A stretch of DNA of 64,000 bases, from NCBI RefSeq assembly GCF_017163755.1, contig NZ_JAFIWC010000004.1, positions 1 through 64,000 of the forward strand, given 5' to 3'. Shown here piece after piece: positions 11,213 through 37,579 of the stretch (within the stretch, counting starts at the first letter, position 1; the number at the start of each line of letters is the position of its first letter). The position numbers and the translations under genes are program-made. The DNA comes from Xanthomonas sp. (GTDB taxonomy: Bacteria; Pseudomonadota; Gammaproteobacteria; Xanthomonadales; Xanthomonadaceae). The notes beneath the pieces were generated by a model, which saw nothing but the letters and a program-made list of their open reading frames with translations, made no database searches and was not told the origin of the DNA.

Positions 11213-12215
11213 AGAGCGCATCCACGGTGCGCGCGACCTGGAGCAGGTGCGCCGCCGACGGATCGTAGCGGTCGTCCTCGCCCAGCCGCTGCGCCCAATG
11301 CAGCAGCGCGCGGCCGCCCCACGCGTCCGGCGGCTCGGCCAGGCGCTCGCGGCGCGTGCCGTCGAACCGGTCGACGGTGAAATCGAAGAACGAGCCGCCG
11401 ACGTTGCGCAGCGCCGCGCCGCCGCCGGTGCCGTAGAGGTTGGCCTCGATCACCGCGTCGCAGCCGGCCGGCAGCCGCCACGAGCACGCCATGCGCACGC
11501 TGGCGCCGTTGTCCATGCGCCACTGCGCGGTGGCGTAGTCCTCCACGCTGCGGATCGGCCGCTGCAGGCGCTGGCCCTGCGCATACAGCGCCGCGTCCAT
11601 GCCGTGGTGGCCGCCGCTGCCGGTGAGCCACATCGCCAGGTCCACCAGGTGGATGCCCAGGTCCATCACGCAACCGCCGCCGGAGCGGGAAAGGTCGTAG
11701 AACCATTCCTTGTCCGGGCCATAGGCGTTGTGGAACACCAGGTCGATCGCGAACAGCTCGCCGAGTTCGCCGGCGGCGATCATCTCGCGCAGCCGCGCCA
11801 TGCCGTTGACGAAGCGGTAGCTGAAATCCACGTCGAGCAGCCGGTCCTGGCGCTGCGCCACGGCAAGCAGCCGCTGCGCCTCCTCGGCGGTGCGGGTCAG
11901 CGGTTTCTGGCAGAACACCGCCAGCCCGCGCTCCAGCGCCGCGGCCGCCTGCGCGGCATGCTCGCCGCTCGGGGTGGCGATGACGATGCCGTCCAGGTCC
12001 TCGCGCGCCAGCAACGCCTCCAGGCCGCTGGCGCGCTCGGCGCCCGGCGCCTCGTCCAGCGCCAGCCGCAGCGCCTCGTCGCTCGCGTCGGCGATCGCCA
12101 CCGCCGTGCCCAGTCCGCTGTCCAGCAGCGCGCGCATGCGCGCCCGGCCGATCCAGCCCACGCCCAGGAAGCCCAGCCGCGGTGCGCGCCATTGCGCCTT
12201 GGGTTGCGCGTTCAT
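11202..12215 (-). CDS. Gfo/Idh/MocA family NAD(P)-dependent oxidoreductase
   Basis: The product has 337 residues. The N-terminal Rossmann fold reads LGFLGVGWIGRARMRALLDSG. The family EKP motif appears as VFCQKPLTRTAEEAQRLL, with Gln in place of Glu but the catalytic-site Lys kept. A C-terminal alpha/beta domain follows, with SGGGCVMDLGIHLVDLAMWLTG containing the conserved DxGxHxxD. Members oxidise or reduce sugars and nucleotide sugars. In this operon it may set a keto group or its reduced form on an activated sugar. Its start overlaps the stop of the dehydrogenase gene upstream as ATGA. Confidence 0.88.
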   Translation of the reverse strand: MNAQPKAQWRAPRLGFLGVGWIGRARMRALLDSGLGTAVAIADASDEALRLALDEAPGAERASGLEALLAREDLDGIVIATPSGEHAAQAAAALERGLAVFCQKPLTRTAEEAQRLLAVAQRQDRLLDVDFSYRFVNGMARLREMIAAGELGELFAIDLVFHNAYGPDKEWFYDLSRSGGGCVMDLGIHLVDLAMWLTGSGGHHGMDAALYAQGQRLQRPIRSVEDYATAQWRMDNGASVRMACSWRLPAGCDAVIEANLYGTGGGAALRNVGGSFFDFTVDRFDGTRRERLAEPPDAWGGRALLHWAQRLGEDDRYDPSAAHLLQVARTVDALYGR

Positions 12216-13174
12216 GCCAGCACCATCCCTTTCAGGAAGCCGTCCGGACGCTCGCTCATCGCGGCGAAGGCCTGGTCCAGCTGGTCCAGCGCGTAACGGT
12301 GGGTGAGCAGCGGGAACGGGTCCAGGCGCCCGTCGGCGACCGCGTCCACCGCCTCCTGCAGGCCCTGCAGCGCGACCCGCGGATCGCGCTCGTGCGCGTT
12401 CACCACGTCCAGGCCGCGCCAGTTCCACTGCTGCATGTCCACCTGGCGCGGCCCGTCCTGGTGGTAGCCGGCGATGATCAGGCGCCCGCCTTCGCTGGCG
12501 ATCGCGCTGGCGATGTCCAGCGTCACCTGTTCGCCGGCGGCCTCGATGACGCGCAGGCAGCCGGTGCCGCCGGTCATCTCCTGCACCGCGCCGATCGCCG
12601 CGTAGCGGTCCTCGGTGCCGAGCGTGGCGCTGGCGCCGCACTGGCGCGCCACGTCCAGCGAGAACTCGCGCCGCGACAGCGCGATCACCTGCGCGCCCAG
12701 CCCGGTCGCCAGCTGGGTCAGCAGCGCGCCGATGAAACCGACGCCGACGATCGCCACGGTCTGTCCGGCGCGGATGTCGCTGCGGCGCAGGATGTTCATC
12801 GCGCAGGCCAGCGGCTCGCCCGGCAGCGGCTTGCCCGCCAACGACGCCGGCAGGCGTACCAGCGCGCCGGCGTCGGCCACGTCGTAGTCGGCGTAGGCGC
12901 GGCCGGACAGCAGCGCCACGCGGTCGCCCGGCCGCCAGTCCTGTACGCCGTCGCCGACCGCGTCGACCTCGCCCCAGCCCTCGTGGCCGGGCGCGCCGGG
13001 CGCGAACGGATACTCGAACCACGGGCGCCCGGCCCATACCGGCAGATTGGACGCGCACACGCCGCAGCCTTCCAGGCGCACGCGCACCTCGTGCGCGGCG
13101 GGTTGCGGACGCGGCTGGCGCTGCGTGCTGATACGGCCTTGGCCTTCGAATACGGCGGCATGCATGCTGTTCAT
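12212..13174 (-). CDS. Medium-chain zinc-type alcohol dehydrogenase-like protein
   Basis: The product has 320 residues and belongs to the medium-chain dehydrogenase/reductase family. The catalytic zinc site is visible as GCGVCASNLPVW and APGHEGWGEVDAVGDGV (Cys and His-Glu), and the nucleotide-binding fold as VAIVGVGFIGALLTQLATGLGAQVIALSR. The structural four-cysteine zinc loop found in many members is absent, making it shorter than the usual 340-370. It is probably a sugar or polyol dehydrogenase serving the glycan pathway. ATGA overlap with the preceding gene fixes the start at 13174. Confidence 0.86.
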   Translation of the reverse strand: MNSMHAAVFEGQGRISTQRQPRPQPAAHEVRVRLEGCGVCASNLPVWAGRPWFEYPFAPGAPGHEGWGEVDAVGDGVQDWRPGDRVALLSGRAYADYDVADAGALVRLPASLAGKPLPGEPLACAMNILRRSDIRAGQTVAIVGVGFIGALLTQLATGLGAQVIALSRREFSLDVARQCGASATLGTEDRYAAIGAVQEMTGGTGCLRVIEAAGEQVTLDIASAIASEGGRLIIAGYHQDGPRQVDMQQWNWRGLDVVNAHERDPRVALQGLQEAVDAVADGRLDPFPLLTHRYALDQLDQAFAAMSERPDGFLKGMVLA

Positions 13175-25524: not shown

Positions 25525-26607
25525 TCAAAAGGGCCGATGGGAGCCGAGCCCCTGGTCGGGAACTGCGCCAACCGCCCCGTTGCCCCCTGCCCCTGCCGTC
25601 ACCCTACTCCTTGGCGCACCCGTCGACCCGCGCAACATCAAGCTGAAATCCAGCGTCTGCTGAAGCGGCACGTCCACACTTTCAATGATGGCGAGCAGCA
25701 GGTTGACCGCGCGGACACCGATCTCCCGCATGGGTTGCCTGATGGTCGTCAAGGGGGGCGTGAGATAACTGGACGATGCCAGGTCGTCGAAGCCGACGAT
25801 GGACAGGTCGTCCGGCACGCGGATGCCCAGGTCCCGGCAGGCCGCCAGGGCGCCCAGCGCCATCTGGTCGCTGAAGCAGAAGATCGCGGTCGGCACGGGC
25901 GCGCGGGCCAACAGCGCCATCGCGGCCGCGTGGCCGGATTCCACGGAGAAGTCGCCCGGCACGACGGTCAGGTTGCGCAGGCGGCCACGCGCCTTGCCGC
26001 AGGCCCGGGCCCCTTCCAGTCGTTGCTGGTGCAGGGGATTGTCAGGCGGGCCACCGACCACGGCGATCCGCTCGTGCCCCAGTCCATACAGGTGTTCCAT
26101 CACGGCGCGCGCGGCGGCCGCGTTGTCGATGTGGACGCTGGGGATGCCCAGCGCCGGGTCGAACTCGCACCCGTTGACCACCGGCGCGGCAGCGCCCAGC
26201 TGCTTGACGATCTCGCGCGCCGTCGGCGGGAGGCGGTGCCCCAGCACGATCAGGCCGTCCGCCTCGTTGCGCCGGAGCATCTGCGCGTAGCGCTCCTCGC
26301 GGTCGGGCTGGTGTTGGGTATCGCCGAGCAGGACCGCGTAGCCGACAGCCTGCGCCGCTTCCTCCGCGCCCTGCAGGATCTGCGCGAAGAATGGATTGGC
26401 GATGTCCGGGACGGTGACCAGGATCTTGCCGCTGCGCTGGGTCTTGAGCGTCCTGGCGACCGTGTTGGGGACATAGCCCAGCGCGGCGGCGGCCTGCTCG
26501 ATGCGCGTGCGCGTGGCCGGCAGGACTTTTTCCGGCCGGGAAAGCGCGCGCGACACCGTGCCGGCGGAGACGCCGACATGCTTTGCGATGTCGTAAATGG
26601 TTGCCAT
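25525..26607 (-). CDS. LacI-family transcriptional regulator
   Basis: The 360-residue repressor has the LacI helix-turn-helix and hinge at residues 1-60 (ATIYDIAKHVGVSAGTVSRALSRPEKVLPATRTRIEQAAAALGYVPN). The periplasmic-binding-protein-like domain includes ILVTVPDIANPFFAQILQGAEEAAQ, VVNGCEF, SVHIDNAAAARAVMEHL and DLSIVGFDDLASSSYLTPPLTTI. It is divergent from the sugar operon at 26702, and its probable operator (26673-26688) lies between them. A near-identical operator lies at the far end of the locus (35397-35412). The ligand is presumably a sugar or keto-sugar of this pathway. The last 30 residues are low complexity. Confidence 0.92.
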   Translation of the reverse strand: MATIYDIAKHVGVSAGTVSRALSRPEKVLPATRTRIEQAAAALGYVPNTVARTLKTQRSGKILVTVPDIANPFFAQILQGAEEAAQAVGYAVLLGDTQHQPDREERYAQMLRRNEADGLIVLGHRLPPTAREIVKQLGAAAPVVNGCEFDPALGIPSVHIDNAAAARAVMEHLYGLGHERIAVVGGPPDNPLHQQRLEGARACGKARGRLRNLTVVPGDFSVESGHAAAMALLARAPVPTAIFCFSDQMALGALAACRDLGIRVPDDLSIVGFDDLASSSYLTPPLTTIRQPMREIGVRAVNLLLAIIESVDVPLQQTLDFSLMLRGSTGAPRSRVTAGAGGNGAVGAVPDQGLGSHRPF

Positions 26608-26672
26608 GGCTTAGTTCTTCTTTCTGCTGTGCAGCGCACAACGGGTCTTGCGGGAGGCCCATGCTAGGATAA

Positions 26673-26688
26673 ATGCAATCGATTGCAT
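26673..26688. promoter_or_regulatory. LacI-type operator O1
   Basis: ATGCAATCGATTGCAT is a perfect 16-base palindrome with the central CG typical of LacI-family operators. It lies 14 bases before the TTG start of the isomerase gene and 65 bases before the repressor gene, so it can control both. Fifteen of its sixteen bases recur at 35397-35412. Confidence 0.85.
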
Positions 26689-26701
26689 CGGACGAATCAC
26701 G

Positions 26702-27754
26702 TTGAAGACGCTCAAGGGTCCGGCGCTGTTCCTGGCGCAGTTCATCGGCGACAAACCTCCCTTCGATCGCTTGGACACGCTGGCCGGGTGGGCCGCGGGC
26801 CTGGGCTATTCTGGCCTACAAGTCCCGACCAGCGCGCCCCACCTGTTCGATCTGGCCCAGGCCGCGCGCAGCCAGGCGTACTGCGACGATGTCGCCGGCA
26901 TGCTGGCCGGGCACGGCCTGCAGATCACCGAGCTGTCCACCCACCTGCAAGGGCAACTGGTCGCCGTCCACCCCGCCTACGACGACCTGTTCGACGGATT
27001 CGCACCGCCGGACAAGCGCGGCGATCCCGCCGCCCGCCAGGCCTGGGCGGTGGAACAGTTGCGGTTGGCGGCCAAGGCCAGCCAGCGCCTGGGGCTGACG
27101 GCGCATGCCACGTTCTCCGGCGCGCTGGCCTGGCCCTACTTCTATCCCTGGCCGCAACGCCCGCCCGGCTTGGTGGAAGCAGCCTTCGCCGAACTCGGCC
27201 GCCGCTGGCGCCCCATCCTCGATGCCTTCGACGCCTGCGGCGTGGACCTGTGCTTCGAGATCCACCCGGGCGAGGACCTGCACGACGGCGCGACCTTCGA
27301 GCGCTTCCTCGAGGTGGTCGACCACCACCCGCGCGCCAGGATCCTGTACGACCCCAGCCACCTGCTGCTGCAGCAGATGGACTACCTGGGCTTCATCGAC
27401 CGGTATCACGCGCGCATCGGCATCTTCCACGTCAAGGACGCGGAGTACCGCGCCAGTGCGCGCAGCGGCGTCTATGGCGGTTACCAGGACTGGATCGATC
27501 GTCCGGGGCGGTTCCGTTCGCTCGGCGATGGCCAGATCGACTTCAAGGCGATCTTCTCGAAGTTCGCGCAATACGATTTCCCGGGCTGGGCAGTGCTGGA
27601 GTGGGAGTGCTGCCTGAAGCATCCGGAAGACGGCGCACGCGAGGGTGCCGCGTTCATCCGCGACCACATCATCCGCGTGACCGAACGCGCCTTCGACGAC
27701 TTTGCCGACAGCGGCGCCGATCCGGAATCGCTGCGCCGCATGCTGGGGACCTGA
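26702..27754 (+). CDS. Cytoplasmic sugar phosphate isomerase/epimerase-like TIM barrel
   Basis: This 350-residue AP-endonuclease-2-type TIM barrel has a divalent-metal site readable in four strands: Glu in LCFEIHPGEDLHDG, Asp/His in RILYDPSHLLLQQMDY, His in IGIFHVKDAEY and Glu in AVLEWECCLK. Family members isomerise or epimerise sugars and keto-sugars. I chose TTG 26702 because the operator palindrome occupies 26673-26688, and the earlier in-frame codons would place it inside the coding region. There is no signal peptide, unlike the other two TIM barrels of the locus. It is first in the five-gene plus-strand operon. Confidence 0.83.
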   Translation: MKTLKGPALFLAQFIGDKPPFDRLDTLAGWAAGLGYSGLQVPTSAPHLFDLAQAARSQAYCDDVAGMLAGHGLQITELSTHLQGQLVAVHPAYDDLFDGFAPPDKRGDPAARQAWAVEQLRLAAKASQRLGLTAHATFSGALAWPYFYPWPQRPPGLVEAAFAELGRRWRPILDAFDACGVDLCFEIHPGEDLHDGATFERFLEVVDHHPRARILYDPSHLLLQQMDYLGFIDRYHARIGIFHVKDAEYRASARSGVYGGYQDWIDRPGRFRSLGDGQIDFKAIFSKFAQYDFPGWAVLEWECCLKHPEDGAREGAAFIRDHIIRVTERAFDDFADSGADPESLRRMLGT

Positions 27755-27781
27755 GCCAATACCGCCCTGGGAGGGGAAGCC

Positions 27782-29014
27782 ATGACGCACACCATGTCGC
27801 GCTTGGGCGCGATGATGTTTCTGCAGTTCTTCATCTGGGGCGCATGGTTCGTGACCCTGGGGACCTATCTGGTGCAGGGACCCCTGCAGGCCAGCGCGAG
27901 CCAGGTGGCGACGGCCTTCCTCAGCCAGTCCATCGGCGCCATCGTGGCGCCGTTCCTGGTCGGCCTGATCGCCGATCGCTACTTCGCGGCGCAACGCATC
28001 CTCGCGGTGCTGCACCTCGCCGGCGCGGCGCTCATGTGGCTGGCGTCCACGGCGACGAGCTTCGGCATGTTCTCCGCCTGCGTCATGGCGTACATGCTGC
28101 TGTTCATGCCGACGCTGGCACTGGCCAACAGCGTGGCGATGCGGCACATGCAATCGCCCGAAAAGCAGTTTCCGCTCGTGCGGGTGGCCGGCAGCGTCGG
28201 CTGGATCGTGGCGGGCGTGCTGATCGGCTGGCTGGGCTGGGAACAGGCGCACCGGCTCGAGCTGACGTTCCGGATGGCGGCGCTGGCGTCGCTGGCCCTG
28301 GGCTTGTACGCCTTCACCCTGCCGCACACGCCGCCGCTGGCGCAACAGCGCGACGCCGGGCTGGGGCAGATGCTGGGACTGGACTCGCTGCGGCTGCTGA
28401 AGTCGCGCTCCTACCTGGTGTTCTTCCTGGCGTCCATCGCCATCTGCATCCCGCTGGCGTTCTACTACAACTTCACCAACCCGTATCTCAACGATCTGGG
28501 CGTGCGCGGCGCGGCCGGCCTGCAGTCGCTGGGCCAGGTCTCCGAAGTCCTGCTGATGCTGGCCATGCCGTTCCTGTTCGTGCGGCTGGGGGTCAAGACG
28601 ATGCTGGCGGTGGGCATGGCGGCGTGGGTGGTGCGCTACGCCATGTTCGCCTTCGGCGATGCGGGCGGCGGCTTCTCCTTGCTGGTGATCGGCATCGTGC
28701 TGCACGGCATCTGCTACGACTTCTTCTTCGTCACCGGCCAGATCTACACCGATGCGCATGCCGGCCCCGCCGCGCGCAGCAGCGCGCAGGGGTTCATCAC
28801 CCTGGCCACGTACGGCGTGGGCATGTTGATCGGCACGTTCCTGTCCGGCGCGGTCGTGGAGCACTACACCACGGCGGCGGGCCCGGACTGGCAGCAGATC
28901 TGGCTGTTCCCGGCAGGCGTGGCGCTGGTCGTGCTGGTCGCCTTCCTGTTGCTGTTCCGCGACCGGCCGGTCGTCGCGGCCGTGCCCTCCACGCCTGAGA
29001 ACCCCACCCGATGA
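27782..29014 (+). CDS. MFS transporter of the nucleoside:H+ symporter (NupG-like) type
   Basis: The 410-residue inner-membrane protein has about 12 hydrophobic segments. The N-terminus MSRLGAMMFLQFFIWGAWFVTLGTYL and the loop SIGAIVAPFLVGLIADRYFAAQRILAVLHLAGA match the NupG/XapB family. Many homologues of this group sit in sugar loci with Gfo/Idh dehydrogenases and isomerases, so a monosaccharide, keto-sugar or glycoside is a likelier substrate here than a nucleoside. The end overlaps the next gene as ATGA. A GGGAGG ribosome site precedes the ATG. Confidence 0.87.
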   Translation: MTHTMSRLGAMMFLQFFIWGAWFVTLGTYLVQGPLQASASQVATAFLSQSIGAIVAPFLVGLIADRYFAAQRILAVLHLAGAALMWLASTATSFGMFSACVMAYMLLFMPTLALANSVAMRHMQSPEKQFPLVRVAGSVGWIVAGVLIGWLGWEQAHRLELTFRMAALASLALGLYAFTLPHTPPLAQQRDAGLGQMLGLDSLRLLKSRSYLVFFLASIAICIPLAFYYNFTNPYLNDLGVRGAAGLQSLGQVSEVLLMLAMPFLFVRLGVKTMLAVGMAAWVVRYAMFAFGDAGGGFSLLVIGIVLHGICYDFFFVTGQIYTDAHAGPAARSSAQGFITLATYGVGMLIGTFLSGAVVEHYTTAAGPDWQQIWLFPAGVALVVLVAFLLLFRDRPVVAAVPSTPENPTR

Positions 29015-30135
29015 GCAAGCTTGGAATCGCCATCGTCGGCACCGGCATGATCGGCGCCGTGCATCGTCGCGCGGCGCTGCTGGCCGGTGCCGTGGTCCGC
29101 GGCGTAGCCGCCTCTTCCCCGCAACGCGCACGCGACGTGGCCCAGTCATGGGATGTCCCGCGCGCCTATCGCGACATCGAGGACGTGGTCGCCGATCCGC
29201 AGGTGCAGGTCGTGCACGTCTGCACGCCCAACCATCTGCACCGCGCCATGGCGCAGGCGGCGCTGCAAGCCGGCAAGCACGTGATCTGCGAGAAGCCGCT
29301 GGCCACGACGTTGCAGGACGCCCAGGCCCTGGCGGCATTGGCCGCCTCGACCGGGCTGGTCGCCACGGTGCCCTTCGTCTACCGCTACCACCCGGTGGTC
29401 CGCGAAGCGCGCGCGCGCATCGCGCAGGGCGAACTGGGGCCGCTGCGCCTGATCCACGGCAGCTACCTGCAGGACTGGCTGCTGGACCCGGCCAGCAACA
29501 ACTGGCGCGTGGACCCGGCACTGGGCGGCGCGTCGCGCGTGTTCGCCGACATCGGCTCGCACTGGTGCGACCTGGTGGAATGGGTCGGCGGCGAGCGGTT
29601 CGTCGAGGTCAGCGCGGCGTTCGCCACCGTGATCGCCGAACGCGGCGCCGTCACCGGGCAGAGCTTCACCACGCCGGCGGGGGGCGGCGCGATGCAGACG
29701 GTATCGAGCGAGGACGTGGCCGCGGCGATGTTCAGGACCGGCGCGGGCACGCTGGCGTCATTGACGGTCAGCCAGGTCTCGGCGGGACGCCGCAATCGCC
29801 TCTGGTTCGAGATCGATGGCGCCAGGGCCAGCGTGGCGTTCGACCAGGAGGACGCCGAACGGCTGTGGATCGGCCGGCCCGACCAGCGCGAGGAAATCTT
29901 CGTGCGCGGGCCGGGTGCCGGCAGTGCCGAACAACGCCGGCTGTCGACGTTGCCGGCCGGGCACGCGCAGGGCTACGGCGATTGCTTCGAGGCGTTTGTC
30001 GCCGACACCTATCGCGCCATCGAAGGCGAGCGGCCGCAAGGCCTGCCCACCTTCGAAGACGGGTTGCGCTCGGCGCTGATCGTCGATCGCGTCATCACAT
30101 CGGCCAGGACGCGCGCCTGGACAGACATCGGTTGA
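29011..30135 (+). CDS. Gfo/Idh/MocA-family sugar dehydrogenase
   Basis: The 374-residue cytoplasmic oxidoreductase has LGIAIVGTGMIGAVHRRAALLAGAVVRGVAAS for nucleotide binding, the EKP motif in VICEKPLATTLQDAQALAAL, and the second-domain motif GGASRVFADIGSHWCDLVEWVGG (DxGxHxxD). Enzymes of this subfamily interconvert sugars and their 3-keto forms with NAD(P). In this operon it is the likely reductase of the imported keto-sugar. It is translationally coupled to the transporter gene. Confidence 0.88.
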   Translation: MSKLGIAIVGTGMIGAVHRRAALLAGAVVRGVAASSPQRARDVAQSWDVPRAYRDIEDVVADPQVQVVHVCTPNHLHRAMAQAALQAGKHVICEKPLATTLQDAQALAALAASTGLVATVPFVYRYHPVVREARARIAQGELGPLRLIHGSYLQDWLLDPASNNWRVDPALGGASRVFADIGSHWCDLVEWVGGERFVEVSAAFATVIAERGAVTGQSFTTPAGGGAMQTVSSEDVAAAMFRTGAGTLASLTVSQVSAGRRNRLWFEIDGARASVAFDQEDAERLWIGRPDQREEIFVRGPGAGSAEQRRLSTLPAGHAQGYGDCFEAFVADTYRAIEGERPQGLPTFEDGLRSALIVDRVITSARTRAWTDIG

Positions 30136-30154
30136 ATCCCGGGAGGACTCCTTG

Positions 30155-31021
30155 ATGAACACCCCTGCACGCAGGACCGCGACCCTCGCACTGCTGTTCC
30201 TCGTTGCCCTGCCCGCCTTCGCACGCGAAGCCGCTGGCCCGCAGAAACCCATCGCGGTGCAGATGTACACGCTGCGCAACGCCGGCTCGCTCGACCAACA
30301 GTTGAAGATCGTCCACGACGCGGGCGTGGGCGCGGTGGAAACGGTCGGCACGCAGAACGTCAGCGCTGCGGAACTCAAGCGGCTGCTGGACAGGTATGCG
30401 ATCAAGGCGATCTCGTCCCACGTGCAACTGGCCGAGCTGCGCAAGGACCTGGACGGCGTTGTGGCCTTCAACCGGTCGATCGGCAACACGACGCTGGTGG
30501 TGCCCTACCTGGACGAGAAGGATCGGCCGACCGATGCCGCGGGATGGACCGCATTGGGCAAGGAACTGGGCCAGATCGCGAAGCGGGTACGGGCCAAGGG
30601 TCTGCGCCTGGCCTACCACAACCACGACTTCGAACTGGTCGACTTCAATGGCAAGACGGGCCTGGAACTGCTGTTCGCAGCCGCCGGCCCCGACCTGCAG
30701 ACCGAGCTGGACCTGGCCTGGGTCGCGCGCGCGGGCTACGACCCGGCGGCGATGCTGGGCAAGTTCAAGGGCCGCATGTTCGCGGTACACGCCAAGGACA
30801 ATGCGCCGAAAGGCCAGGCCGAGGATGAGGGCGGTTTCGCCGCCGTGGGCCAGGGCGTGCTGGACTGGAACGCGATCCTGCCTGCCGCGGCGGGTGCCGG
30901 CGTGCGCTGGTACATCATCGAGCACGACCGTCCGCGCGATCCGGCCGCGGTCGTCCAGACCGGCGCGGACTACCTGCGTGAACACCTGCCCGCCAGCCTG
31001 CCCGCCAACGCACAGCGCTAG
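30155..31021 (+). CDS. Exported sugar isomerase/epimerase-like TIM barrel
   Basis: The 288-residue protein has a Sec signal peptide (MNTPARRTATLALLFLVALPAFA-REAAG) and should act in the periplasm. The mature part is an AP-endonuclease-2-type barrel: PIAVQMYTLRNAGSLDQQLKIVHDAGVGAVETVG, LRLAYHNHDFELVDF, TELDLAWVARAGYDP, GRMFAVHAKDNA and WYIIEHDRPRDPAA supply the metal-site residues. ATG 30155 has a GGGAGGA ribosome site at 30141-30147. Export of this fold suggests that it handles a keto-sugar produced outside the cytoplasm by the dehydrogenase complex. Confidence 0.83.
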   Translation: MNTPARRTATLALLFLVALPAFAREAAGPQKPIAVQMYTLRNAGSLDQQLKIVHDAGVGAVETVGTQNVSAAELKRLLDRYAIKAISSHVQLAELRKDLDGVVAFNRSIGNTTLVVPYLDEKDRPTDAAGWTALGKELGQIAKRVRAKGLRLAYHNHDFELVDFNGKTGLELLFAAAGPDLQTELDLAWVARAGYDPAAMLGKFKGRMFAVHAKDNAPKGQAEDEGGFAAVGQGVLDWNAILPAAAGAGVRWYIIEHDRPRDPAAVVQTGADYLREHLPASLPANAQR

Positions 31022-31039
31022 CCCGCGAAGGAGCCCCGC

Positions 31040-31336
31040 TTGAAAACGATCCTGACAGTGGCCGCAGTTCTACTGGGGGCGACGCTTGCGACCACGGCGT
31101 GGTCCAAGGACGACCCTGCGGCCGGCGCGCAGCTCTACGCAACGAACTGCACGGCCTGCCACGGCGCCGATCGCGCGGGCGTCCCCGGCGCGTTCCCCGC
31201 GCTCACCGACGTGGGCAAGCGGCTGGAGCCCGCGCAGATCAAGGAGAAGATCAGCAAGGGCGGTGGGTTGATGCCGCCCTTTTCCCAGCTGTCCCAACAG
31301 GATATCGACAACATCGCCAGCTTCCTGGCGCAATAG
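31040..31336 (+). CDS. Class I cytochrome c, periplasmic
   Basis: The 98-residue protein has a signal peptide (MKTILTVAAVLLGATLATTAWS), a single haem site CTACH (Cys37, Cys40, His41) and a distal Met78 in GGLMPPF. The start is a TTG preceded by GAAGGAG. It is the last gene of the plus-strand operon and is the obvious electron acceptor for the FAD dehydrogenase encoded by the converging operon. Confidence 0.9.
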   Translation: MKTILTVAAVLLGATLATTAWSKDDPAAGAQLYATNCTACHGADRAGVPGAFPALTDVGKRLEPAQIKEKISKGGGLMPPFSQLSQQDIDNIASFLAQ

Positions 31337-31345
31337 GATGCCGGC

Positions 31346-31368
31346 GCCGGCGCCAGCTGCGCGCCGGC
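31346..31368. terminator. Hairpin between the two convergent sugar operons
   Basis: GCCGGCGC (31346-31353) and GCGCCGGC (31361-31368) pair perfectly around a seven-base loop, exactly between the cytochrome and DUF1080 stops. There is no T-tract, so it may end or protect both transcripts rather than act as a classical intrinsic terminator. Confidence 0.4.
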
Positions 31369-31372
31369 GGCG

Positions 31373-32116
31373 CTACAGCTCGCGCACCCAGATGTTGCGG
31401 TAGCTGACCTTGGAATCGTGCTCCTGCAGGGAGATCGGCGCGCACGCATGCGGCGAGTACGAAGGCGCGCCGATGTACTCGGTCTTGCCCGACAGGACGG
31501 TGTCGTCCTGCACCAGGACGCCGTTGTGCAGGACGGTGATGCGGGCGGGTGAAATGAGCCCGCCCCCCGGCGAGAAGCGCGGCGCCTTCCAGACGATGTC
31601 GTAGGCCTGCCATTCGCCCGGCGCACGCGAGGCGTTCACCAGCGGAATGGCCTGCTTGTAGATCGAGCCGGCCTGGCCGTTGGCATAGGTCGGGTTGTTG
31701 TAGCTGTCGAGCACCTGCAGCTCATACAGGTCCTGCAGGAAGATGCCGCTGTTGCCCCGCTGCTGGCCGTCGAAACCCCGGGTCGCGGTGGGCGTGCGCC
31801 ACTCGACATGCAGCTGGATGTCGCAGAAGCGCTGCTTGGTGCGGATGCCCTTGCTCCCCGGCACCACGGTCAGCGCGCCGCCGGCCACGCTCCAGGGTAC
31901 GCGTCCGCCCTGCTCCGACTCCCAGGCGGAGAGATCCTTGCTACCGAACAGCACGATCGCGTCGGAGGGCGCGCGGCCCGCGGGCGTGGCCACGACCGCG
32001 GGCACGGGCGTCCACGCCTCGGTCTTGGTCGGATCGCGCGGCAGGTCGCCGCTGGCCTGCGCGAACGCAGGCGCCGCGGCCAGCAGGCAGGCCGCCATCA
32101 GCAGGGGTCTGGTCAT
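31373..32116 (-). CDS. Exported DUF1080 (3-keto-disaccharide hydrolase-type) protein
   Basis: The 247-residue protein has a signal peptide (MTRPLLMAACLLAAAPAFAQA). The DUF1080 beta-sandwich is visible in DAIVLFGSKDLSAWESEQGGRVPWSVAGGALTVVPGSKGIRTKQRFCDIQLHVEWRTP, the RGNSGIFLQDLYELQVLDSYNNPTYANGQAGSIYKQ core, and the C-terminal KVSYRNIWVREL. Proteins with this domain have been shown to cleave 3-keto-glycosides. ATG 32116 is chosen because the signal peptide starts there. It closes the minus-strand operon whose earlier genes make the dehydrogenase that could generate such 3-keto substrates. Confidence 0.87.
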   Translation of the reverse strand: MTRPLLMAACLLAAAPAFAQASGDLPRDPTKTEAWTPVPAVVATPAGRAPSDAIVLFGSKDLSAWESEQGGRVPWSVAGGALTVVPGSKGIRTKQRFCDIQLHVEWRTPTATRGFDGQQRGNSGIFLQDLYELQVLDSYNNPTYANGQAGSIYKQAIPLVNASRAPGEWQAYDIVWKAPRFSPGGGLISPARITVLHNGVLVQDDTVLSGKTEYIGAPSYSPHACAPISLQEHDSKVSYRNIWVREL

Positions 32117-32160
32117 GGTGTTCCCGGGAAAGTGGTGCATGGGCGAAGCGGTGCGGTCCA

Positions 32161-32736
32161 TCAGCTGGTCGCCCACGCGGGCGTACCGGGGGCATAGGCC
32201 AAGTCGCCGTCGTAGCGACCCGGCACGGCGACGTACCGCAGCACTTCGGTCGCGGCGACCTTCGAGGTGAAGAAGCTGAAGATGACCAGTTGCTTGATCA
32301 TCGTGAAGTGATGCGGCATCGCGTCGGCCACTTTGGCGGTGCCGGTGTCGGCCACGTCGACGGCGTGTTTCCTGGCTTCTGCATCCAGCGCGCGCAGCAG
32401 CTCGGTGCGGGCCTGCGGGGTGAGCGACACGAAGCGGCCGCCGGCGCGCTTGTCGATATCGGCCAGGCCGGCACGGAACGCCGCCTGCTGCTGGGCGGTG
32501 TAGCAGTCGGTGACGAATTGCGCCATGAACAGGCCCACGCCGGCGTCCTTCGCCCCCGGTGTCTTGGTTCGCGGCAGGATGGTCTCGGCGATCTCGTCCA
32601 GCGTGCCGACATCGGCGGCGGAGAAGGCGTTCTTCGCCCCGGCGGCCGGCGCCTGTGCATGGGCGAGCGCGGGCAGGCCGACCATGGCCGCGCCCGTGGC
32701 GGCGACGATCATCTTCAGCAGTTCGCGGCGTTCCAT
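32161..32736 (-). CDS. Gluconate 2-dehydrogenase subunit 3-like (gamma) subunit, Tat-exported
   Basis: The 191-residue protein has a twin-arginine leader (MERRELLKMIVAATGAAMVGLPALAHA) and the subunit-3 body with LDEIAETILPRTKTPGAKDAGVGLFMAQFVTDCYTAQQQAAF and KQLVIFSFFTSKVAATEVLRYVAVPGRYDGDL. In FAD-dependent dehydrogenase complexes this small subunit carries the Tat signal that exports the folded FAD subunit, which lacks a signal of its own. The ATG overlaps the stop of the GMC gene by one base. Confidence 0.9.
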   Translation of the reverse strand: MERRELLKMIVAATGAAMVGLPALAHAQAPAAGAKNAFSAADVGTLDEIAETILPRTKTPGAKDAGVGLFMAQFVTDCYTAQQQAAFRAGLADIDKRAGGRFVSLTPQARTELLRALDAEARKHAVDVADTGTAKVADAMPHHFTMIKQLVIFSFFTSKVAATEVLRYVAVPGRYDGDLAYAPGTPAWATS

Positions 32737-34421
32737 CACAGGTTCCCCGCTTTCAGCTCGCGCACGGCATGGTCGGCTGCCCGTGCGGTCAGCGCCATGT
32801 AGGTCAGCGAGGGATTCACGCAGGCGCTGGAGGTCATGCAGGCGCCGTCGGTCACGTAGACGTTCGGCGCGTCCCAGACCTGGTTGTGCTGGTTCAGCAC
32901 GGAGTTCCTGCGGTCACGGCCCATGCGCGCGGTGCCCATCTCGTGGATGCCCTTGCCCGGGGCGTAGTCGTCATCGTGCATCTCCACGTCCTTGACCCCG
33001 GCGGCCTCGAACATCTCCGCGGCATCGGCGGCCATGTCCTTGCGCATGGCCTTCTCGTTCGCGCGCAGGGACACGTCCATCGCCAGCACCGGCAGCCCCC
33101 ATTTGTCCTTGCGCTGCGGGTCCAGGCGAATCGTATTGTCGTGGTGAGGCAGCATTTCGCCGAATCCCGTCATGCCGATGCGCCAGTCGCCCGGCAGGGT
33201 CAGCGCGTCCTTCAGGTCGGCGCCGATGTTCAACTCGGCGATCTCGCGCGACCACCCGGTGCGGCTGGCGCCGCCCTGGTAGCCGAACCCGCGCAGGTAG
33301 CCGCGCTTGTCCGCGGCGACGTTGCGGAAACGGGGAATGTAGAAGCCGCAGGGACGACGGCCGAAGTAGTACTTGTCGTCGTAGCCCTCGACCCGGCCGG
33401 AGGCACCCGCGCCGAAATGATGGTCCATCACGTTGTGCCCAAGTTCGCCGGACGAAGAACCCAGCCCGCCTTCCCAGACATCGGTGGCCGAGTTCATCAG
33501 CAGCCAGGTCGAGTTGAAGGAGGACGCGTTGAGGAAGATGACGTTGGCCGTGTACTGGTAGGTCTGTCCGCTCTCGGCATCGATGATCTCCACGCCCCGC
33601 GCACGCTTGCGGTCCTTGTCGTAGAGCACTTCCTTGACGATCGAGAACGGCCGCAAGGTCAGGTTGCCCGTCTTCATGGCCGCCGGCAGCGTCGCCGACT
33701 GGGTCGAGAAGTAGGCGCCGTAGGGACAGCCCAGGATGCACTTGTTGCGGTACTGGCAATTGACGCGGCCCTGCTCGACCTTGGGTTCGGTGATGTTCGC
33801 GGTGCGCGAGTGGATCAGGTGCCGGGTCCCGCCGAAGGCCTTCTTGATCCGCGCGGCCACGTCCTTCTCGACGATGTTCAACGGGATCGGCGGCAGGAAC
33901 TCGCCGTCGGGCAGCACGTCCAGGCCTTCGCGCGTGCCGGCGATGCCGGCGAACTTCTCCACGTAGTCGTACCAGGGCGCGATGTCGGCGTAACGGATCG
34001 GCCAATCGGTGGCGATGCCGTCCTTGAGGTTCGCCTGGAAATCCAGGTCCGACAGGCGATAGCTCTGCCGCCCCCACATCAGCGAGCGACCGCCCACGTG
34101 GTAGCCGCGGAACCAGTCGAACCGCTTGGTCTCGACATAGGGCGATTCCTTTTCGTTGGCCCACATGCCTTGCAGGTTCTCGACCAGGCCGTAGTCGCGC
34201 ATCAGCACCGGATAGTCGGCCTTCATCGCCTGGGTCGGCCGGTTGCGGTGCGGGAAATCCCACGCCTCCTTCATCGCGTTGACGTAGTCCTTGACATGCT
34301 CGATGTTGCGTCCGCGTTCCAGCATCAGGACCTTGAGGCCTTTCTCGGTCAGCTCCTTCGCCGCCCAACCGCCACTGATTCCCGAGCCAACGACGATGGC
34401 GTCGTAGTGATTGTCTGCCAT
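32736..34421 (-). CDS. GMC oxidoreductase, catalytic FAD subunit of a sugar dehydrogenase complex
   Basis: The 561-residue flavoprotein has the FAD motif YDAIVVGSGISGGWAAKELTEKGLKVLMLERG at residues 6-37 and RGYHVGGRSLMWGRQSYR (about 105-122). The C-terminal active-site pair is a His in GIHEMGTARMG and an Asn in CVNPSLTYMAL. Cys222, Cys228 and Cys232 have the same C-x5-C-x3-C spacing as the cysteines that bind a 3Fe-4S cluster in bacterial FAD-glucose dehydrogenase, so electrons can pass to a cytochrome c. There is no leader peptide; export would rely on the subunit encoded next. It is probably a glycoside or sugar 3-dehydrogenase; the substrate is inferred. Confidence 0.91.
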   Translation of the reverse strand: MADNHYDAIVVGSGISGGWAAKELTEKGLKVLMLERGRNIEHVKDYVNAMKEAWDFPHRNRPTQAMKADYPVLMRDYGLVENLQGMWANEKESPYVETKRFDWFRGYHVGGRSLMWGRQSYRLSDLDFQANLKDGIATDWPIRYADIAPWYDYVEKFAGIAGTREGLDVLPDGEFLPPIPLNIVEKDVAARIKKAFGGTRHLIHSRTANITEPKVEQGRVNCQYRNKCILGCPYGAYFSTQSATLPAAMKTGNLTLRPFSIVKEVLYDKDRKRARGVEIIDAESGQTYQYTANVIFLNASSFNSTWLLMNSATDVWEGGLGSSSGELGHNVMDHHFGAGASGRVEGYDDKYYFGRRPCGFYIPRFRNVAADKRGYLRGFGYQGGASRTGWSREIAELNIGADLKDALTLPGDWRIGMTGFGEMLPHHDNTIRLDPQRKDKWGLPVLAMDVSLRANEKAMRKDMAADAAEMFEAAGVKDVEMHDDDYAPGKGIHEMGTARMGRDRRNSVLNQHNQVWDAPNVYVTDGACMTSSACVNPSLTYMALTARAADHAVRELKAGNL

Positions 34422-34451
34422 GGGTTCTACTTCACCTGGGTGGATATCGTT

Positions 34452-35348
34452 TCAGACGTCGCAGAGGCGGATCGCCTCGCGCAGCGAGCCGACGGGATCC
34501 AGCGCCGTAGGAATGAATTCCTGCGCCAGATAGCCATCGAAACCGGTATCGCGGATCGCGCGACAGATGGCGGGATAGTGGAGTTCCTGAGCGTCTCCGA
34601 TCTCGTGCCGGCCAGGCACGCCCGCGGTGTGGTAATGCTTGAAGCAAGCGTGATGCTTGCCGATGGTGGCGATGATGTCGCCCTCCATGATCTGCATGTG
34701 GTAGATGTCGTACAGCAGGCCGAAATGCTCCGAGCCGAGCCGCCGGCACAGTTCGACGCCCCATGCGGAGTGGTCGCACAGGTAGTCGTGATGATCGACC
34801 TTGGAGTTCAGCAGCTCCATCACCAGCACGACGCCGCGCTTCTCGGCATGCCCGAGGATGCGCTTGAGTCCCGCTTCGGCGTGGGCCATGCCTTCCTGGG
34901 GGTCCATGCCGTTGCGATTGCCGGAAAAACAGATGAGGTTGCGATAGCCGGCGTCGGCCACCAGGTCGATGTGCCGCGTGTAGCGCTCGACCAACTGGTC
35001 GTGGAACTGGCTGCCGGCGAAGCCCTTGTCCAGGCCCAGCTCCGCGCCGTTGCACATCGAGCTGTGCACGCCATTGGCCTTCAGCGTGGGCCAATCCGCC
35101 GGGCCCACCAGATCGATGGCGGCGAAACCGATGCCCTTCACCGTCTGGCAGAGCTGGGCGATCGACTGCTGCGGAAACGTCCATCGGGCGACGGAATGCT
35201 TCAGGTTGCCCTTGAGCGGCGTGGTGGCGGCAAACGCAGGCAGCATGCCAGCCGCGCCCAGGCCAAGGCTCCCGGCGACGGCAACGCGCAACGCGTCTCG
35301 CCTCGTGAACCCCGAGGCCGCCGCTGGTCCGATCGAATGGATAGACAT
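34452..35348 (-). CDS. Tat-exported hydroxypyruvate isomerase-like TIM barrel
   Basis: The 298-residue protein has a twin-arginine leader (GFTRRDALRVAVAGSLGLGAAGMLPAFA, Arg16-Arg17) and a TIM barrel of the hydroxypyruvate isomerase/AP-endonuclease-2 group. Metal-site strands are VLVMELLNSKVDH, LLYDIYHMQIMEG, CFKHYHTAGVPGRHEIGD and GYLAQEFIP. It is the first gene of the minus-strand operon, behind operator O2. The start at ATG 35348 is set by the leader; an ORF further upstream runs through the operator and is not credible. Its periplasmic location parallels the TIM barrel at 30155-31021. Confidence 0.86.
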   Translation of the reverse strand: MSIHSIGPAAASGFTRRDALRVAVAGSLGLGAAGMLPAFAATTPLKGNLKHSVARWTFPQQSIAQLCQTVKGIGFAAIDLVGPADWPTLKANGVHSSMCNGAELGLDKGFAGSQFHDQLVERYTRHIDLVADAGYRNLICFSGNRNGMDPQEGMAHAEAGLKRILGHAEKRGVVLVMELLNSKVDHHDYLCDHSAWGVELCRRLGSEHFGLLYDIYHMQIMEGDIIATIGKHHACFKHYHTAGVPGRHEIGDAQELHYPAICRAIRDTGFDGYLAQEFIPTALDPVGSLREAIRLCDV

Positions 35349-35396
35349 CCACTTTCCGGCCTCCCAACCGGTATCAAATGCTAAGGATTCGCCGCA

Positions 35397-35412
35397 ATGC
35401 AATCGATTGCAC
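35397..35412. promoter_or_regulatory. LacI-type operator O2
   Basis: ATGCAATCGATTGCAC matches operator O1 at 15 of 16 positions; the inner 14 bases are a perfect palindrome. It lies 49 bases upstream of the Tat TIM-barrel gene. An extra half-site GCAATCG follows at 35423-35429. Together with O1 it brackets the whole sugar locus. Confidence 0.84.
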
Positions 35413-35872: not shown

Positions 35873-36388
35873 CTAGAACGGGATGTCGTCGTCGGCGAAA
35901 TCGTCCATCGGCGCGGACTGCTGCGGCGCCGGCTGCTGGCGGCGCGGCGCGTAGTCCTGTCCGCCGCCGCCCTGGTTCGGGCGCTCCTGCCGTGGCGCCG
36001 CCGAGCGCTGCGGGCGATCGCCGCCCATGCCGGCACCGCCACCGCCGCCTTCGCCGCGGCCGCCGAGCATCTGCATCTCGTCGGCGACGATGTCGGTGGA
36101 GTACTTCTCCACGCCGTCCTGGCCGGTGTACTTGTCATAGCGGATCGAGCCTTCGACGTAGACCGAGCTGCCCTTGCGCAGGTACTCGCCGGCGATCTCG
36201 CCGAGCTTGCCGAAGAACACCACGCGGTGCCATTCGGTGCGCTCCTGCTGGTTGCCGTCCTTGTCCTTGCGCACGCTGGTGGTGGCCAGGCTGATGCGGG
36301 TGATCGCCATGCCGGCCTGGGTGTACTTGGTGTCGGGATCGTTGCCGAGGTTGCCGACGAGGATGACTTTGTTGATGCCGCGGGCCAT
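35873..36388 (-). CDS. ssb: Single-stranded DNA-binding protein
   Basis: The 171-residue protein has the OB-fold at residues 1-110 (ARGINKVILVGNLGNDPDTKYTQAGMAITRISLATTS...TEWHRVVFFGKLGEIAGEYLRKGSSVYVEGSIRYDKYTGQDGVEKYSTDIVADEMQML). A flexible Gly/Gln/Pro-rich linker follows, and the acidic tip MDDFADDDIPF recruits replication and repair partners. It binds single-stranded DNA as a tetramer. ATG 36388 is the conserved start. It is monocistronic with its own terminator and is divergent from the polyprenyl synthase gene. Confidence 0.97.
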   Translation of the reverse strand: MARGINKVILVGNLGNDPDTKYTQAGMAITRISLATTSVRKDKDGNQQERTEWHRVVFFGKLGEIAGEYLRKGSSVYVEGSIRYDKYTGQDGVEKYSTDIVADEMQMLGGRGEGGGGGAGMGGDRPQRSAAPRQERPNQGGGGQDYAPRRQQPAPQQSAPMDDFADDDIPF

Positions 36389-36475
36389 GGAATTCTTCCG
36401 TTCGGGGTGGTGAACCCGCTCGGGCGCGGGCATGTCTGACAGGGTCGCCCGCTCGGGGACGGGCGAAGACAGTGA

Positions 36476-36554
36476 ATTATACCGGGCTGGGGGCGGATAT
36501 CAGCCTTCCCCCGGTTCAGGCGTCAGACTTGCCCCCGCCGGGGTGGCCTATAAT
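36476..36554. promoter_or_regulatory. Back-to-back -10 elements for ssb and ispB
   Basis: A perfect TATAAT on the minus strand (36481-36476) faces ssb, and another on the plus strand (36549-36554) faces the polyprenyl synthase gene, 27 bases before its ATG. The matching -35 boxes are weak; TTGCCC at 36529-36534 is 14 bases from the second one. Confidence 0.5.
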
Positions 36555-36580
36555 CCCTGCACTCCCCCTAGTCCGACCGC

Positions 36581-37579
36581 ATGAGCCTCGCCGAAGACCT
36601 CCGCCCCGCCCTGGGCCTGTCCCAGATCCAGGCGCTCGCCGCGCCCGACATGGAGGCCGCCGACGCGCTGATCCGGCGCCGCCTGGCCTCGGACGTGGTG
36701 CTGATCAACCAGATCGCCGACCACATCATCTCCGCTGGCGGCAAGCGCCTGCGGCCGATGCTGGTCATGCTGGCCGGCCGCGCCTGCGGCAGCGGCGGTG
36801 CGCAGCACCAGCAGTTGGCGGTGATCGTCGAGTTCATCCACACCTCGACCCTGCTGCACGACGACGTGGTCGACGAATCGGACCTGCGCCGCGGCCGCAG
36901 CACCGCCAACGCGTTGTGGGGCAACGCGCCCAGCGTGCTGGTCGGCGATTTCCTGTACTCGCGCAGCTTCCAGCTGATGGTCGAACTGGACAGCATGGCG
37001 GTGATGCGGCTGCTGGCCGACACCACCAACCGCATCGCCGAGGGCGAAGTGCTGCAGCTGCTGCACGTGCACAACCCCGATACCGACGAAGCCGCCTACC
37101 TGCGGGTGATCGAACGCAAGACCGCGGTGCTGTTCGCCGCCGGCACCCGGCTCGGCGCGATGGCCTCCGGCGCCTCGGCGGACGTGCAGCAGCGCCTGTA
37201 CGACTACGGCATGCACCTGGGCTACGCGTTCCAGATCGCCGACGACGTGCTCGACTACGCCGCCGATGCCGCCGACCTGGGCAAGAACCTCGGCGACGAC
37301 CTGGCCGAGGGCAAGGCCACGCTGCCGCTGATCCACGCGATGGCGCACTCGGACGATGCCGTCCGGCAGCGCTTGCGCGCGATCGTCGAACAGGGCGACG
37401 CCGGCGCGATGCCCGAGGTGCTCGGCGCCATCCGCGCCACCGGCGGGCTGGAATACAGCCGCCGCCGCGCCGCCGAGTACGCCGCCGCCGCCGAGCGGGC
37501 GCTGGACGGCCTGCCGGAAAGCGATGCGCTCGCCGCGCTGCGCGGCCTGGCGCGCTACGCGGTCGAACGCAGGCATTGA
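36581..37579 (+). CDS. ispB: Polyprenyl diphosphate synthase (octaprenyl type)
   Basis: The 332-residue trans-prenyltransferase elongates farnesyl diphosphate with isopentenyl diphosphate to make the ubiquinone side chain. GGKRLRPMLVMLAGRACG and the first aspartate-rich motif LLHDDVVDESDLRRGRST are followed by NALWGNAPSVLVGDFLYSRSF. The second aspartate motif is YAFQIADDVLDYAADAADLGKNLGDDLAEGKATLPLI. Length and motifs fit IspB; the exact chain length cannot be read with certainty. It is monocistronic, with a -10 TATAAT directly upstream. Confidence 0.93.
   Translation: MSLAEDLRPALGLSQIQALAAPDMEAADALIRRRLASDVVLINQIADHIISAGGKRLRPMLVMLAGRACGSGGAQHQQLAVIVEFIHTSTLLHDDVVDESDLRRGRSTANALWGNAPSVLVGDFLYSRSFQLMVELDSMAVMRLLADTTNRIAEGEVLQLLHVHNPDTDEAAYLRVIERKTAVLFAAGTRLGAMASGASADVQQRLYDYGMHLGYAFQIADDVLDYAADAADLGKNLGDDLAEGKATLPLIHAMAHSDDAVRQRLRAIVEQGDAGAMPEVLGAIRATGGLEYSRRRAAEYAAAAERALDGLPESDALAALRGLARYAVERRH

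What the first reader, a model, noticed from the sequence alone, without database searches (positions are those of the whole stretch)
25525..35412. LacI-controlled locus for a probable periplasmic 3-keto-glycoside pathway
Seen: two convergent operons, each behind almost the same palindrome (26673-26688 and 35397-35412, 15 of 16 bases identical), next to a LacI gene. Their products are a Tat-exported FAD dehydrogenase complex, a cytochrome c, an exported DUF1080 protein, three TIM-barrel isomerases (two exported), an NupG-type transporter and a Gfo/Idh dehydrogenase. Known: GMC/subunit-3/cytochrome complexes include glucoside 3-dehydrogenases, DUF1080 proteins cleave 3-keto-glycosides, and Gfo/Idh enzymes interconvert 3-keto sugars. 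Inference: a glycoside is oxidised at C3 and cleaved in the periplasm, then imported and reduced, with LacI sensing an intermediate.
Basis: partly seen in the sequence, partly recalled or inferred. Interest (0 to 1): 0.82.

Follow-up and report, generated by a model that had tools for sequence, protein, structure and literature searches.

The report
LacI-controlled 3-keto-glucoside cleavage locus
These two operons very probably let the bacterium take glucose from glycosides by oxidising them at carbon 3 and splitting them outside the cytoplasm by elimination rather than hydrolysis, under one local repressor; the chemistry is already known from Agrobacterium, so this is a well-supported new example with a few new details.

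Summary
A LacI gene and two convergent operons are present, and the two 16-base palindromes differ at one base. Their 14-base core is exact at only two places in the 5.07 Mb genome. Against the Agrobacterium glucoside operon, the GMC protein is 76% identical, the first TIM barrel is 74% identical to the 2-hydroxy-3-keto-glucal hydratase, and the exported one is 58% identical to the O-glycoside beta-eliminase, with metal and catalytic residues kept. Cleavage is therefore most likely elimination in the periplasm, then import, hydration and reduction in the cytosol. Gene order is kept in 34 of 34 relatives bar noted losses, operator 1 in 34, operator 2 in 33. LacI helix type and both operators change together, in one or two events. 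Beyond the papers I could read: the importer is swapped (MFS here, ABC in Agrobacterium), and in GMC-linked loci the eliminase is exported in 15 of 15 with the Tat subunit and 0 of 2 without. Outside GMC-linked loci that rule fails. Substrate, inducer and the third TIM barrel's role are inferred. Novelty: new member of a known kind.

The parts
25525..26607 (-). LacI-family regulator (HTH PF00356 + Peripla_BP_3), divergent from the + operon
   Evidence: best NCBIfam model CytR 316.9 bits, below its 436 cut-off
26673..26688 (.). operator 1, ATGCAATCGATTGCAT, in the LacI/hydratase divergent gap
26702..27754 (+). cytosolic TIM barrel, 2-hydroxy-3-keto-glucal hydratase homologue (no signal peptide by eye)
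   Evidence: 8ro4 hit E 3.5e-181; 73.6% identical to the Agrobacterium copy
27782..29014 (+). NupG-type MFS symporter (PF03825), proposed importer of the cleaved sugar
   Evidence: kept in 34 of 34 relatives
29011..30135 (+). Gfo/Idh/MocA oxidoreductase, proposed 3-keto-glucose reductase
   Evidence: 34.9% to the Agrobacterium operon's Gfo
30152..31021 (+). exported TIM barrel, O-glycoside beta-eliminase homologue; AtOGE residues H132, H134, D163, H189, E233 = H156, H158, D187, H213, E257
   Evidence: 8bvk hit E 7e-97; residues from PMC10628242; kept in 63 of 63 proteins aligned, window included
31040..31336 (+). exported cytochrome c with one CXXCH, proposed electron acceptor
31373..32116 (-). 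exported DUF1080 (PF06439) protein, proposed 3-keto-glycoside lyase/hydrolase, perhaps for alpha-linkages
   Evidence: 4qhz E 9.4e-72
32161..32736 (-). Gluconate_2-dh3 subunit with Tat signal (MERRELLK...), thought to carry the GMC protein out
   Evidence: hitch-hiker export is recalled
32736..34421 (-). GMC flavoprotein, glucoside 3-dehydrogenase catalytic subunit
   Evidence: 75.9% over 561 residues to the Agrobacterium operon's GMC; PF05199/PF00732
34452..35348 (-). Tat-exported TIM barrel with E178/D214/H240/E277, proposed 3-keto-sugar epimerase or isomerase
35397..35412 (.). operator 2, ATGCAATCGATTGCAC, upstream of the - operon

Best explanation
A LacI-repressed glycoside-utilisation locus of the oxidation-elimination-hydration-reduction type. 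(1) In the periplasm the GMC protein, carried out by its Tat subunit and passing electrons to cytochrome c, oxidises the glucosyl C3 hydroxyl of a glycoside. (2) The exported Mn-type TIM barrel eliminates the aglycone from beta-linked 3-keto-glucosides; DUF1080 cleaves other (perhaps alpha-linked) ones, and the Tat-exported TIM barrel epimerises or isomerises 3-keto sugars. (3) The MFS symporter imports the cleaved sugar, 2-hydroxy-3-keto-glucal or 3-keto-glucose. (4) In the cytosol the hydratase and the Gfo/Idh enzyme make 3-keto-glucose and then glucose. LacI sits on both palindromes over the promoters and on its own divergent gap until an inducer, probably made after the oxidation, releases it. 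Shown here by sequence: gene content, signals (by eye), conserved active-site residues, conserved operators, LacI/operator co-change. Inferred: every reaction in this organism, repression, substrate, inducer, transported molecule, roles of DUF1080 and the third TIM barrel.
For: Agrobacterium locus L155: GMC 75.9%, hydratase 73.6%, eliminase 58.1%, Tat subunit 49.4%, LacI 39.5%, Gfo 34.9%. PMC10628242 (passages) shows C3 oxidation by the Rhizobium GlycDH (95.5% identical to the A. tumefaciens one) and beta-elimination with Mn by AtOGE; it calls the hydratase evidence preliminary. Eliminase metal and catalytic residues kept in 63 of 63 proteins, window included. Same gene order in 34 of 34 relatives except cytochrome c missing in 4 and one locus cut by a contig end; operator 1 in 34 of 34, operator 2 in 33 of 34. 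Operator cores 97.8% and 95.8% conserved against 65.1% and 73.0% in flanks (35 and 24 rows; 10 rows dropped from the second because the site lay outside the stretch cut). LacI with Thr (helix start, recalled): 10 of 10 have TTCAATCG in both operators; with Ser: 25 of 25 TGCAATCG in operator 1, 23 of 24 in operator 2. Caulobacter cluster with LacABC, DUF1080, a transporter, two epimerases and a reductase has lactose phenotypes, some genes also salicin and raffinose (PMC9007349 section 10).
Against: No experiment in this organism. The Gfo enzyme is only 35% identical to the Agrobacterium one and misses the levoglucosan dehydrogenase cut-off (190.8 of 650 bits). The LacI/operator co-change is one or two evolutionary events, not ten. 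Cytochrome c is missing from 4 of 34 relatives' loci, L068-L071. The CytR and nucleoside-permease models (both below cut-off) would fit a nucleoside locus. Exported eliminases also occur in 6 genomes with no GMC or Tat-subunit match, so the enzyme need not work with this dehydrogenase everywhere.
Confidence: 0.8

Rival explanations
1. Whole 3-keto-glycosides are imported and cut in the cytosol; the exported TIM barrels only trim or epimerise.
For: Distant eliminase homologues lack signal peptides: 75 loci scored as no signal and no GMC (one of them, L154, looks exported by eye), so cytosolic cleavage probably exists in the wider family.
Against: The closest homologues are exported: 15 of 15 GMC-linked loci with the Tat subunit (13 by rule; L156 and L245 by eye). 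The hydratase has no signal, and the Agrobacterium importer is a ribose-type ABC system, a type that I recall as importing monosaccharides.
Confidence: 0.1
2. A nucleoside or nucleoside-like glycoside locus: CytR-like LacI and NupG-like symporter handle nucleosides.
For: PF03825 Nuc_H_symport 380.7 bits; TIGR00889 nucleoside permease 369.1; CytR model 316.9.
Against: The TIGR00889 and CytR cut-offs are missed (446.1 and 436). GMC, hydratase and eliminase match glucoside enzymes at 58-76%.
Confidence: 0.05
3. The main job is degradation of galactosides such as lactose, as in Caulobacter, with the Tat-exported TIM barrel turning 3-keto-galactosides into 3-keto-glucosides.
For: Caulobacter lac cluster phenotypes; top Foldseek match of the third TIM barrel is YcjR, 3-keto-D-glucoside 4-epimerase, E 7.6e-13; alphaproteobacterial loci L244 and L245 have much the same gene set.
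Confidence: 0.2
4. The palindromes are bound by another regulator, and the LacI neighbour is coincidence.
For: No binding data.
Against: Even palindrome with central CG is the usual LacI form (PMC4052901, passages); only two exact cores in the genome; recognition helix and both operators change together; distant loci L198, L200 and L205 have cores with 0-1 mismatch close to their own LacI gene.
Confidence: 0.04

Closest known systems
Agrobacterium tumefaciens glucoside operon: GlycDH, AtOGE (8bvk), AtHYD (8ro4), Gfo (PMC10628242)
   Same: Close homologues of GMC (75.9%), hydratase (73.6%) and eliminase (58.1%), Tat subunit, LacI gene; the native eliminase gene in L155 also encodes a signal peptide
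   Different: No DUF1080 or Tat-exported TIM barrel found in the 20 kb of L155, a ribose-type ABC importer instead of an MFS symporter, genes all on one strand, and palindromes of another spelling in front
Caulobacter crescentus lac cluster: LacABC, two DUF1080, transporter, two epimerases, reductase (PMC9007349)
   Same: Same inventory of functions, periplasmic oxidation and cleavage proposed there, genetic phenotypes
   Different: Its sequences were not compared here; unnamed alphaproteobacterial loci L244 and L245 that resemble the description have GMC 54-57%, hydratase 77-79%, LacI 54-55%, and eliminases with Tat signals by eye
Bacteroides thetaiotaomicron 3-keto-O-glycoside lyase (PMC13273386 passages, citing Kastner 2024)
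   Same: A lyase acting on a 3-keto-alpha-glucoside; recalled, not from a call, to be a DUF1080-type protein
   Different: Bacteroides is recalled to use Gfo/Idh dehydrogenases (models BT_2158 and BT_2159 appear) rather than a GMC complex
Levoglucosan pathway of Bacillus smithii (PMC7676230, start of abstract seen in listings)
   Same: Four steps: oxidation, elimination, hydration, reduction
   Different: Starts with levoglucosan dehydrogenase (Gfo/Idh type, recalled); the window's Gfo misses that model's cut-off

Membership tests
Non-hydrolytic glucoside pathway (Agrobacterium type) | GMC glucoside 3-dehydrogenase with Tat subunit | tested here: met
   75.9% over 561 residues and Tat subunit 49.4%; PF13618
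Non-hydrolytic glucoside pathway (Agrobacterium type) | Eliminase with His-Asp-His-Glu metal site and catalytic His | tested here: met
Non-hydrolytic glucoside pathway (Agrobacterium type) | 2-hydroxy-3-keto-glucal hydratase | tested here: met
   8ro4, E 3.5e-181; 73.6%; by homology only
Non-hydrolytic glucoside pathway (Agrobacterium type) | Gfo/Idh 3-keto-glucose reductase | tested here: inconclusive
   Gfo/Idh enzyme present but only 34.9% to the Agrobacterium one
Non-hydrolytic glucoside pathway (Agrobacterium type) | Measured conversion of a glucoside to glucose plus aglycone | not testable with these tools
   needs enzyme assays
LacABC-type membrane dehydrogenase | GMC + gluconate-2-dh3 subunit + cytochrome c | tested here: met
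   cytochrome absent in 4 of 34 relatives
LacI-family regulator | LacI HTH plus sugar-binding domain | tested here: met
   PF00356 57.7 bits, PF13377 135.7 bits
LacI-family regulator | Even palindromic operator with central CG near target starts | tested here: met
   form described in PMC4052901
LacI-family regulator | Binding of the protein to both operators | not testable with these tools
   co-change only
CytR | NCBIfam NF008269 cut-off 436 bits | tested here: not met
   316.9 bits
3-keto-disaccharide hydrolase (DUF1080, PF06439) | Pfam gathering score 26.8 | tested here: met
   142 bits
3-keto-disaccharide hydrolase (DUF1080, PF06439) | Activity on 3-keto-alpha-glucosides | not testable with these tools
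   only inferred from the Bacteroides lyase
Levoglucosan dehydrogenase | NF052479 cut-off 650 bits | tested here: not met
   190.8 bits
Nucleoside permease TIGR00889 | cut-off 446.1 bits | tested here: not met
   369.1 bits; wider Pfam family PF03825 met
Ketose/3-keto-sugar epimerase (YcjR or tagatose-epimerase like) for the Tat-exported TIM barrel | Fold and metal residues | tested here: inconclusive

The most novel reading that the evidence does not exclude
In loci built on the GMC dehydrogenase, the whole front of the pathway moves together. With the Tat-carried subunit, oxidation, elimination and the TIM-barrel epimerase are all periplasmic, and the membrane step is import of the reactive enone 2-hydroxy-3-keto-glucal (or 3-keto-glucose), by an MFS symporter in Xanthomonadaceae and an ABC importer in Agrobacterium. 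Without the subunit the same enzymes carry no signal and the pathway is cytosolic. Evidence: eliminase exported in 15 of 15 GMC-linked loci with the subunit and 0 of 2 without (L242, L243, whose genomes have no PF13618 match). Against: two loci are few, and in 6 of 8 genomes with an exported eliminase but no GMC nearby there is neither subunit nor GMC match, so the subunit is not what decides export in general.
Probability: 0.3. Interest if true: 0.55.

Novelty: new member of a known kind. Interest (0 to 1): 0.42.

Why it matters
It extends the glucoside pathway worked out with Agrobacterium and Rhizobium enzymes to Xanthomonadaceae, with a compact, conserved regulon whose exact operator core occurs at only two places in the genome, so inducer and substrates can be sought with one reporter. 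It also predicts where each step happens and which molecule crosses the membrane. The main text of the Agrobacterium enzyme paper has no hit for periplasm, signal peptide, transport, secret-, cytosol or export, though it names a TAT-pathway signal protein.

Tried and rejected
Idea that export of the eliminase is new in this lineage: rejected. The native Agrobacterium gene in L155 also encodes a signal peptide; the crystal chain 8bvk lacks it. Idea that the Tat subunit decides eliminase export everywhere: rejected. The eight distinct genomes with an exported eliminase and no GMC nearby were searched; 6 have no PF13618 match and the same 6 no GMC match at 1e-20. L132 and L158 are the same stretch, so one search's 9 such loci are 8; no two of the 17 GMC-linked loci share more than a fifth of their 31-mers. 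Idea of a conserved leader peptide before the Tat-exported TIM barrel: rejected, reading frames are not conserved. Nucleoside locus: unlikely. Palindromes elsewhere: in 107 loci (2.02 Mb) the core with 0-1 mismatch is found in L148-L151 (two exact each) and in L198, L200, L205 (five sites, near LacI). In selected stretches of 15 loci other palindromes turned up: L130 (two), L157, L153 and L173 (one each). PMC4052901 (passages only) has no hit for Xanthomon- in its main text. A paper search for Xanthomonas, LacI, GMC oxidoreductase and related terms listed 5 papers, none on this locus by title and abstract start; one search listed only off-topic papers among its 20. No wider claim of absence from print is made. 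Kastner 2024 (Angew. Chem.) and Arellano 2010 are not held; what I say of them beyond citations in held papers is recalled. In one search the TetR query was out of frame (7 stops), so its result is not used.
Full report
OBSERVATION. Both palindromes are where stated and differ at one base. The window holds 3 matches with up to 3 mismatches against 0.20 expected from shuffles. In the whole 5.07 Mb genome the 14-base core is exact only at these two sites, there is no one-mismatch site, and four sites have two mismatches. All ten genes are confirmed by profile search. The genes are packed as operons: MFS and Gfo overlap by 4 bases, the GMC stop overlaps the Tat-subunit start at 32736, other gaps are 16-44 bases, and the operons converge across 36 bases. 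LacI is divergent from the + operon, so operator 1 may also control LacI itself.

WHAT THE ENZYMES ARE. The first TIM barrel (26702-27754) matches 8ro4, named 2-hydroxy-3-keto-glucal hydratase, over its whole length at E 3.5e-181. The exported TIM barrel (30152-31021) matches 8bvk at E 7e-97, which PMC10628242 identifies as AtOGE, an O-glycoside beta-eliminase needing Mn (passages). Its metal ligands His132, Asp163, His189, Glu233 and catalytic His134 fall on His156, Asp187, His213, Glu257 and His158 here, with no gap in the alignment, and are kept in 63 of 63 proteins aligned, window included. The Agrobacterium locus L155 (genomospecies 13; its eliminase and hydratase are 97.1% and 96.0% identical to the 8bvk and 8ro4 pieces compared) gives GMC 75.9% over 561 residues, hydratase 73.6%, eliminase 58.1%, Tat subunit 49.4%, LacI 39.5%, Gfo 34.9%. 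In that paper the Rhizobium flavoenzyme GlycDH, 95.5% identical to the A. tumefaciens one, oxidises glucosides at C3, AtOGE cleaves, and the hydratase role is called preliminary. The 8ro4 title and a later paper's outline of the four steps (PMC13273386, passages) agree. DUF1080 here is close to 4qhz (E 9.4e-72), named a putative glycosyl hydrolase. A Bacteroides lyase acting on a 3-keto-alpha-glucoside is cited in PMC13273386; that it is DUF1080-type is recalled. A division of labour by anomer is plausible, not shown.

CONSERVATION AND REGULATION. The hydratase is found in 35 of 247 sampled genomes of the family, own genome included, in 8 of 54 genera. In 34 of 34 relatives with the main copy the order LacI, hydratase, MFS, Gfo, eliminase, (cytochrome c), DUF1080, Tat subunit, GMC, TIM barrel is kept, except that cytochrome c is missing in 4 (L068-L071), which have another GMC gene there, and one locus (L050) ends before the last gene. 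Operator 1 is present in 34 of 34 and operator 2 in 33 of 34, with up to 2 mismatches allowed. Operator cores are far more conserved than flanks (0.978 against 0.651; 0.958 against 0.730; 35 and 24 rows, 10 rows dropped from the second set because the site lay outside the stretch cut, though one search shows it). All 10 LacI proteins with Thr at what I recall as the start of the recognition helix (they also have one extra residue near the N-terminus) go with TTCAATCG in both operators. All 25 with Ser, window included, go with TGCAATCG in operator 1, and 23 of 24 in operator 2 (the other is TACAATCG). Trees of 34 sequences give 2 changes on hydratase+MFS+GMC (deciding nodes support 0.004 and 0.28) and 1 on LacI without its first 65 codons (Thr clade support 0.85), so this is one or two natural experiments, not ten. 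It still ties LacI to both sites. Three distant loci (L198, L200, L205) have cores with 0-1 mismatch near their LacI gene, and L130 and L157 have palindromes of another spelling by the same genes.

COMPARTMENTS. Of 107 loci examined (L128-L227, L242-L248), 106 had an eliminase match; 6 were set aside because the start motif was not found. By rule, 13 are exported with a GMC gene nearby, 9 exported without, 3 unexported with GMC, 75 unexported without. Of the three unexported with GMC, L245 has a Tat signal that the rule missed. L156, one of the six set aside, has a signal by eye, and L154, scored as no signal, looks like one too. So all 15 GMC-linked eliminases with the Tat subunit are exported, and they are distinct loci, though several are related. 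The two GMC-linked loci without it (L242, L243) have no signal on eliminase or TIM barrel, and their genomes have no PF13618 match (3 of the 6 genomes given had one). The rule does not hold outside GMC-linked loci: of the 8 distinct genomes with an exported eliminase and no GMC nearby, 6 have neither a PF13618 match nor a GMC match at 1e-20, so another enzyme must oxidise the sugar there. In Agrobacterium L155 a ribose-type ABC importer precedes LacI, while here an MFS symporter sits next to the hydratase. This supports import of a small product after periplasmic cleavage. The main text of PMC10628242 has no hit for periplasm, signal peptide, transport, secret-, cytosol or export; the 2024 follow-up is not held.

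GENETIC SUPPORT ELSEWHERE. PMC9007349 section 10 (read) reports that in Caulobacter crescentus LacABC, a DUF1080 gene, and a nearby transporter, two epimerases and a reductase matter for lactose, with salicin and raffinose phenotypes for some. That inventory matches the window. Two unnamed alphaproteobacterial loci (L244, L245) have it with hydratase 77-79%, GMC 54-57%, LacI 54-55% (that they are alphaproteobacterial is inferred from 'same phylum' kinship and likeness). I recall, from no call, that Caulobacter lac expression depends on the dehydrogenase itself, which would fit an inducer made after oxidation.

ORGANISM. The best-matching named records are Pseudoxanthomonas and Luteimonas (which warns that records very near the window's genome may be left out), so the window is from the Xanthomonadaceae; no call named the genus.

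VERDICT. The finding is real, well conserved and well interpreted. It is a new member of a known pathway, with a regulon and an importer swap that I did not find in the papers held. Substrate and inducer are the open questions.

Noticed in passing
L075 (own genome contig C75), about 6610-12777: A second site in the same genome has a GMC gene 59% identical to the window's with its own Gluconate_2-dh3 subunit, beside a further GMC, subunit and DUF1080 set on the other strand; one search lists no operator-like core on that contig.
   Followed up: partly
L068-L071 and L151: In these relatives another GMC gene sits between eliminase and the - strand genes; in L068 and L071, the two looked at closely, it is a DUF1080-GMC-subunit triad in place of cytochrome c.
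   Followed up: partly
L072, L073, L074: Three genomes of one genus carry a second hydratase copy, 64-65% identical, with none of the other pathway genes found in the 18 kb around it.
   Followed up: no
L130, L131, L132 (= L158), L133, L157, L159, L160: Loci including named Enterobacteriaceae (Pantoea, Enterobacter, Leclercia, Mangrovibacter) have an exported eliminase, mostly with LacI, but no GMC nearby; in L130, L131, L133, L159 and L160 the whole genome has no GMC or Tat-subunit match, so what oxidises the glycoside there is unknown.
   Followed up: partly
window 35873-37579: The locus lies beside ssb and a polyprenyl synthetase-like gene in 6 of 7 loci of the same genus and 4 of 5 of another genus, and beside ssb in 7 of 9 of a third; in the other 13 of the 34 loci neither was found.
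   Followed up: partly
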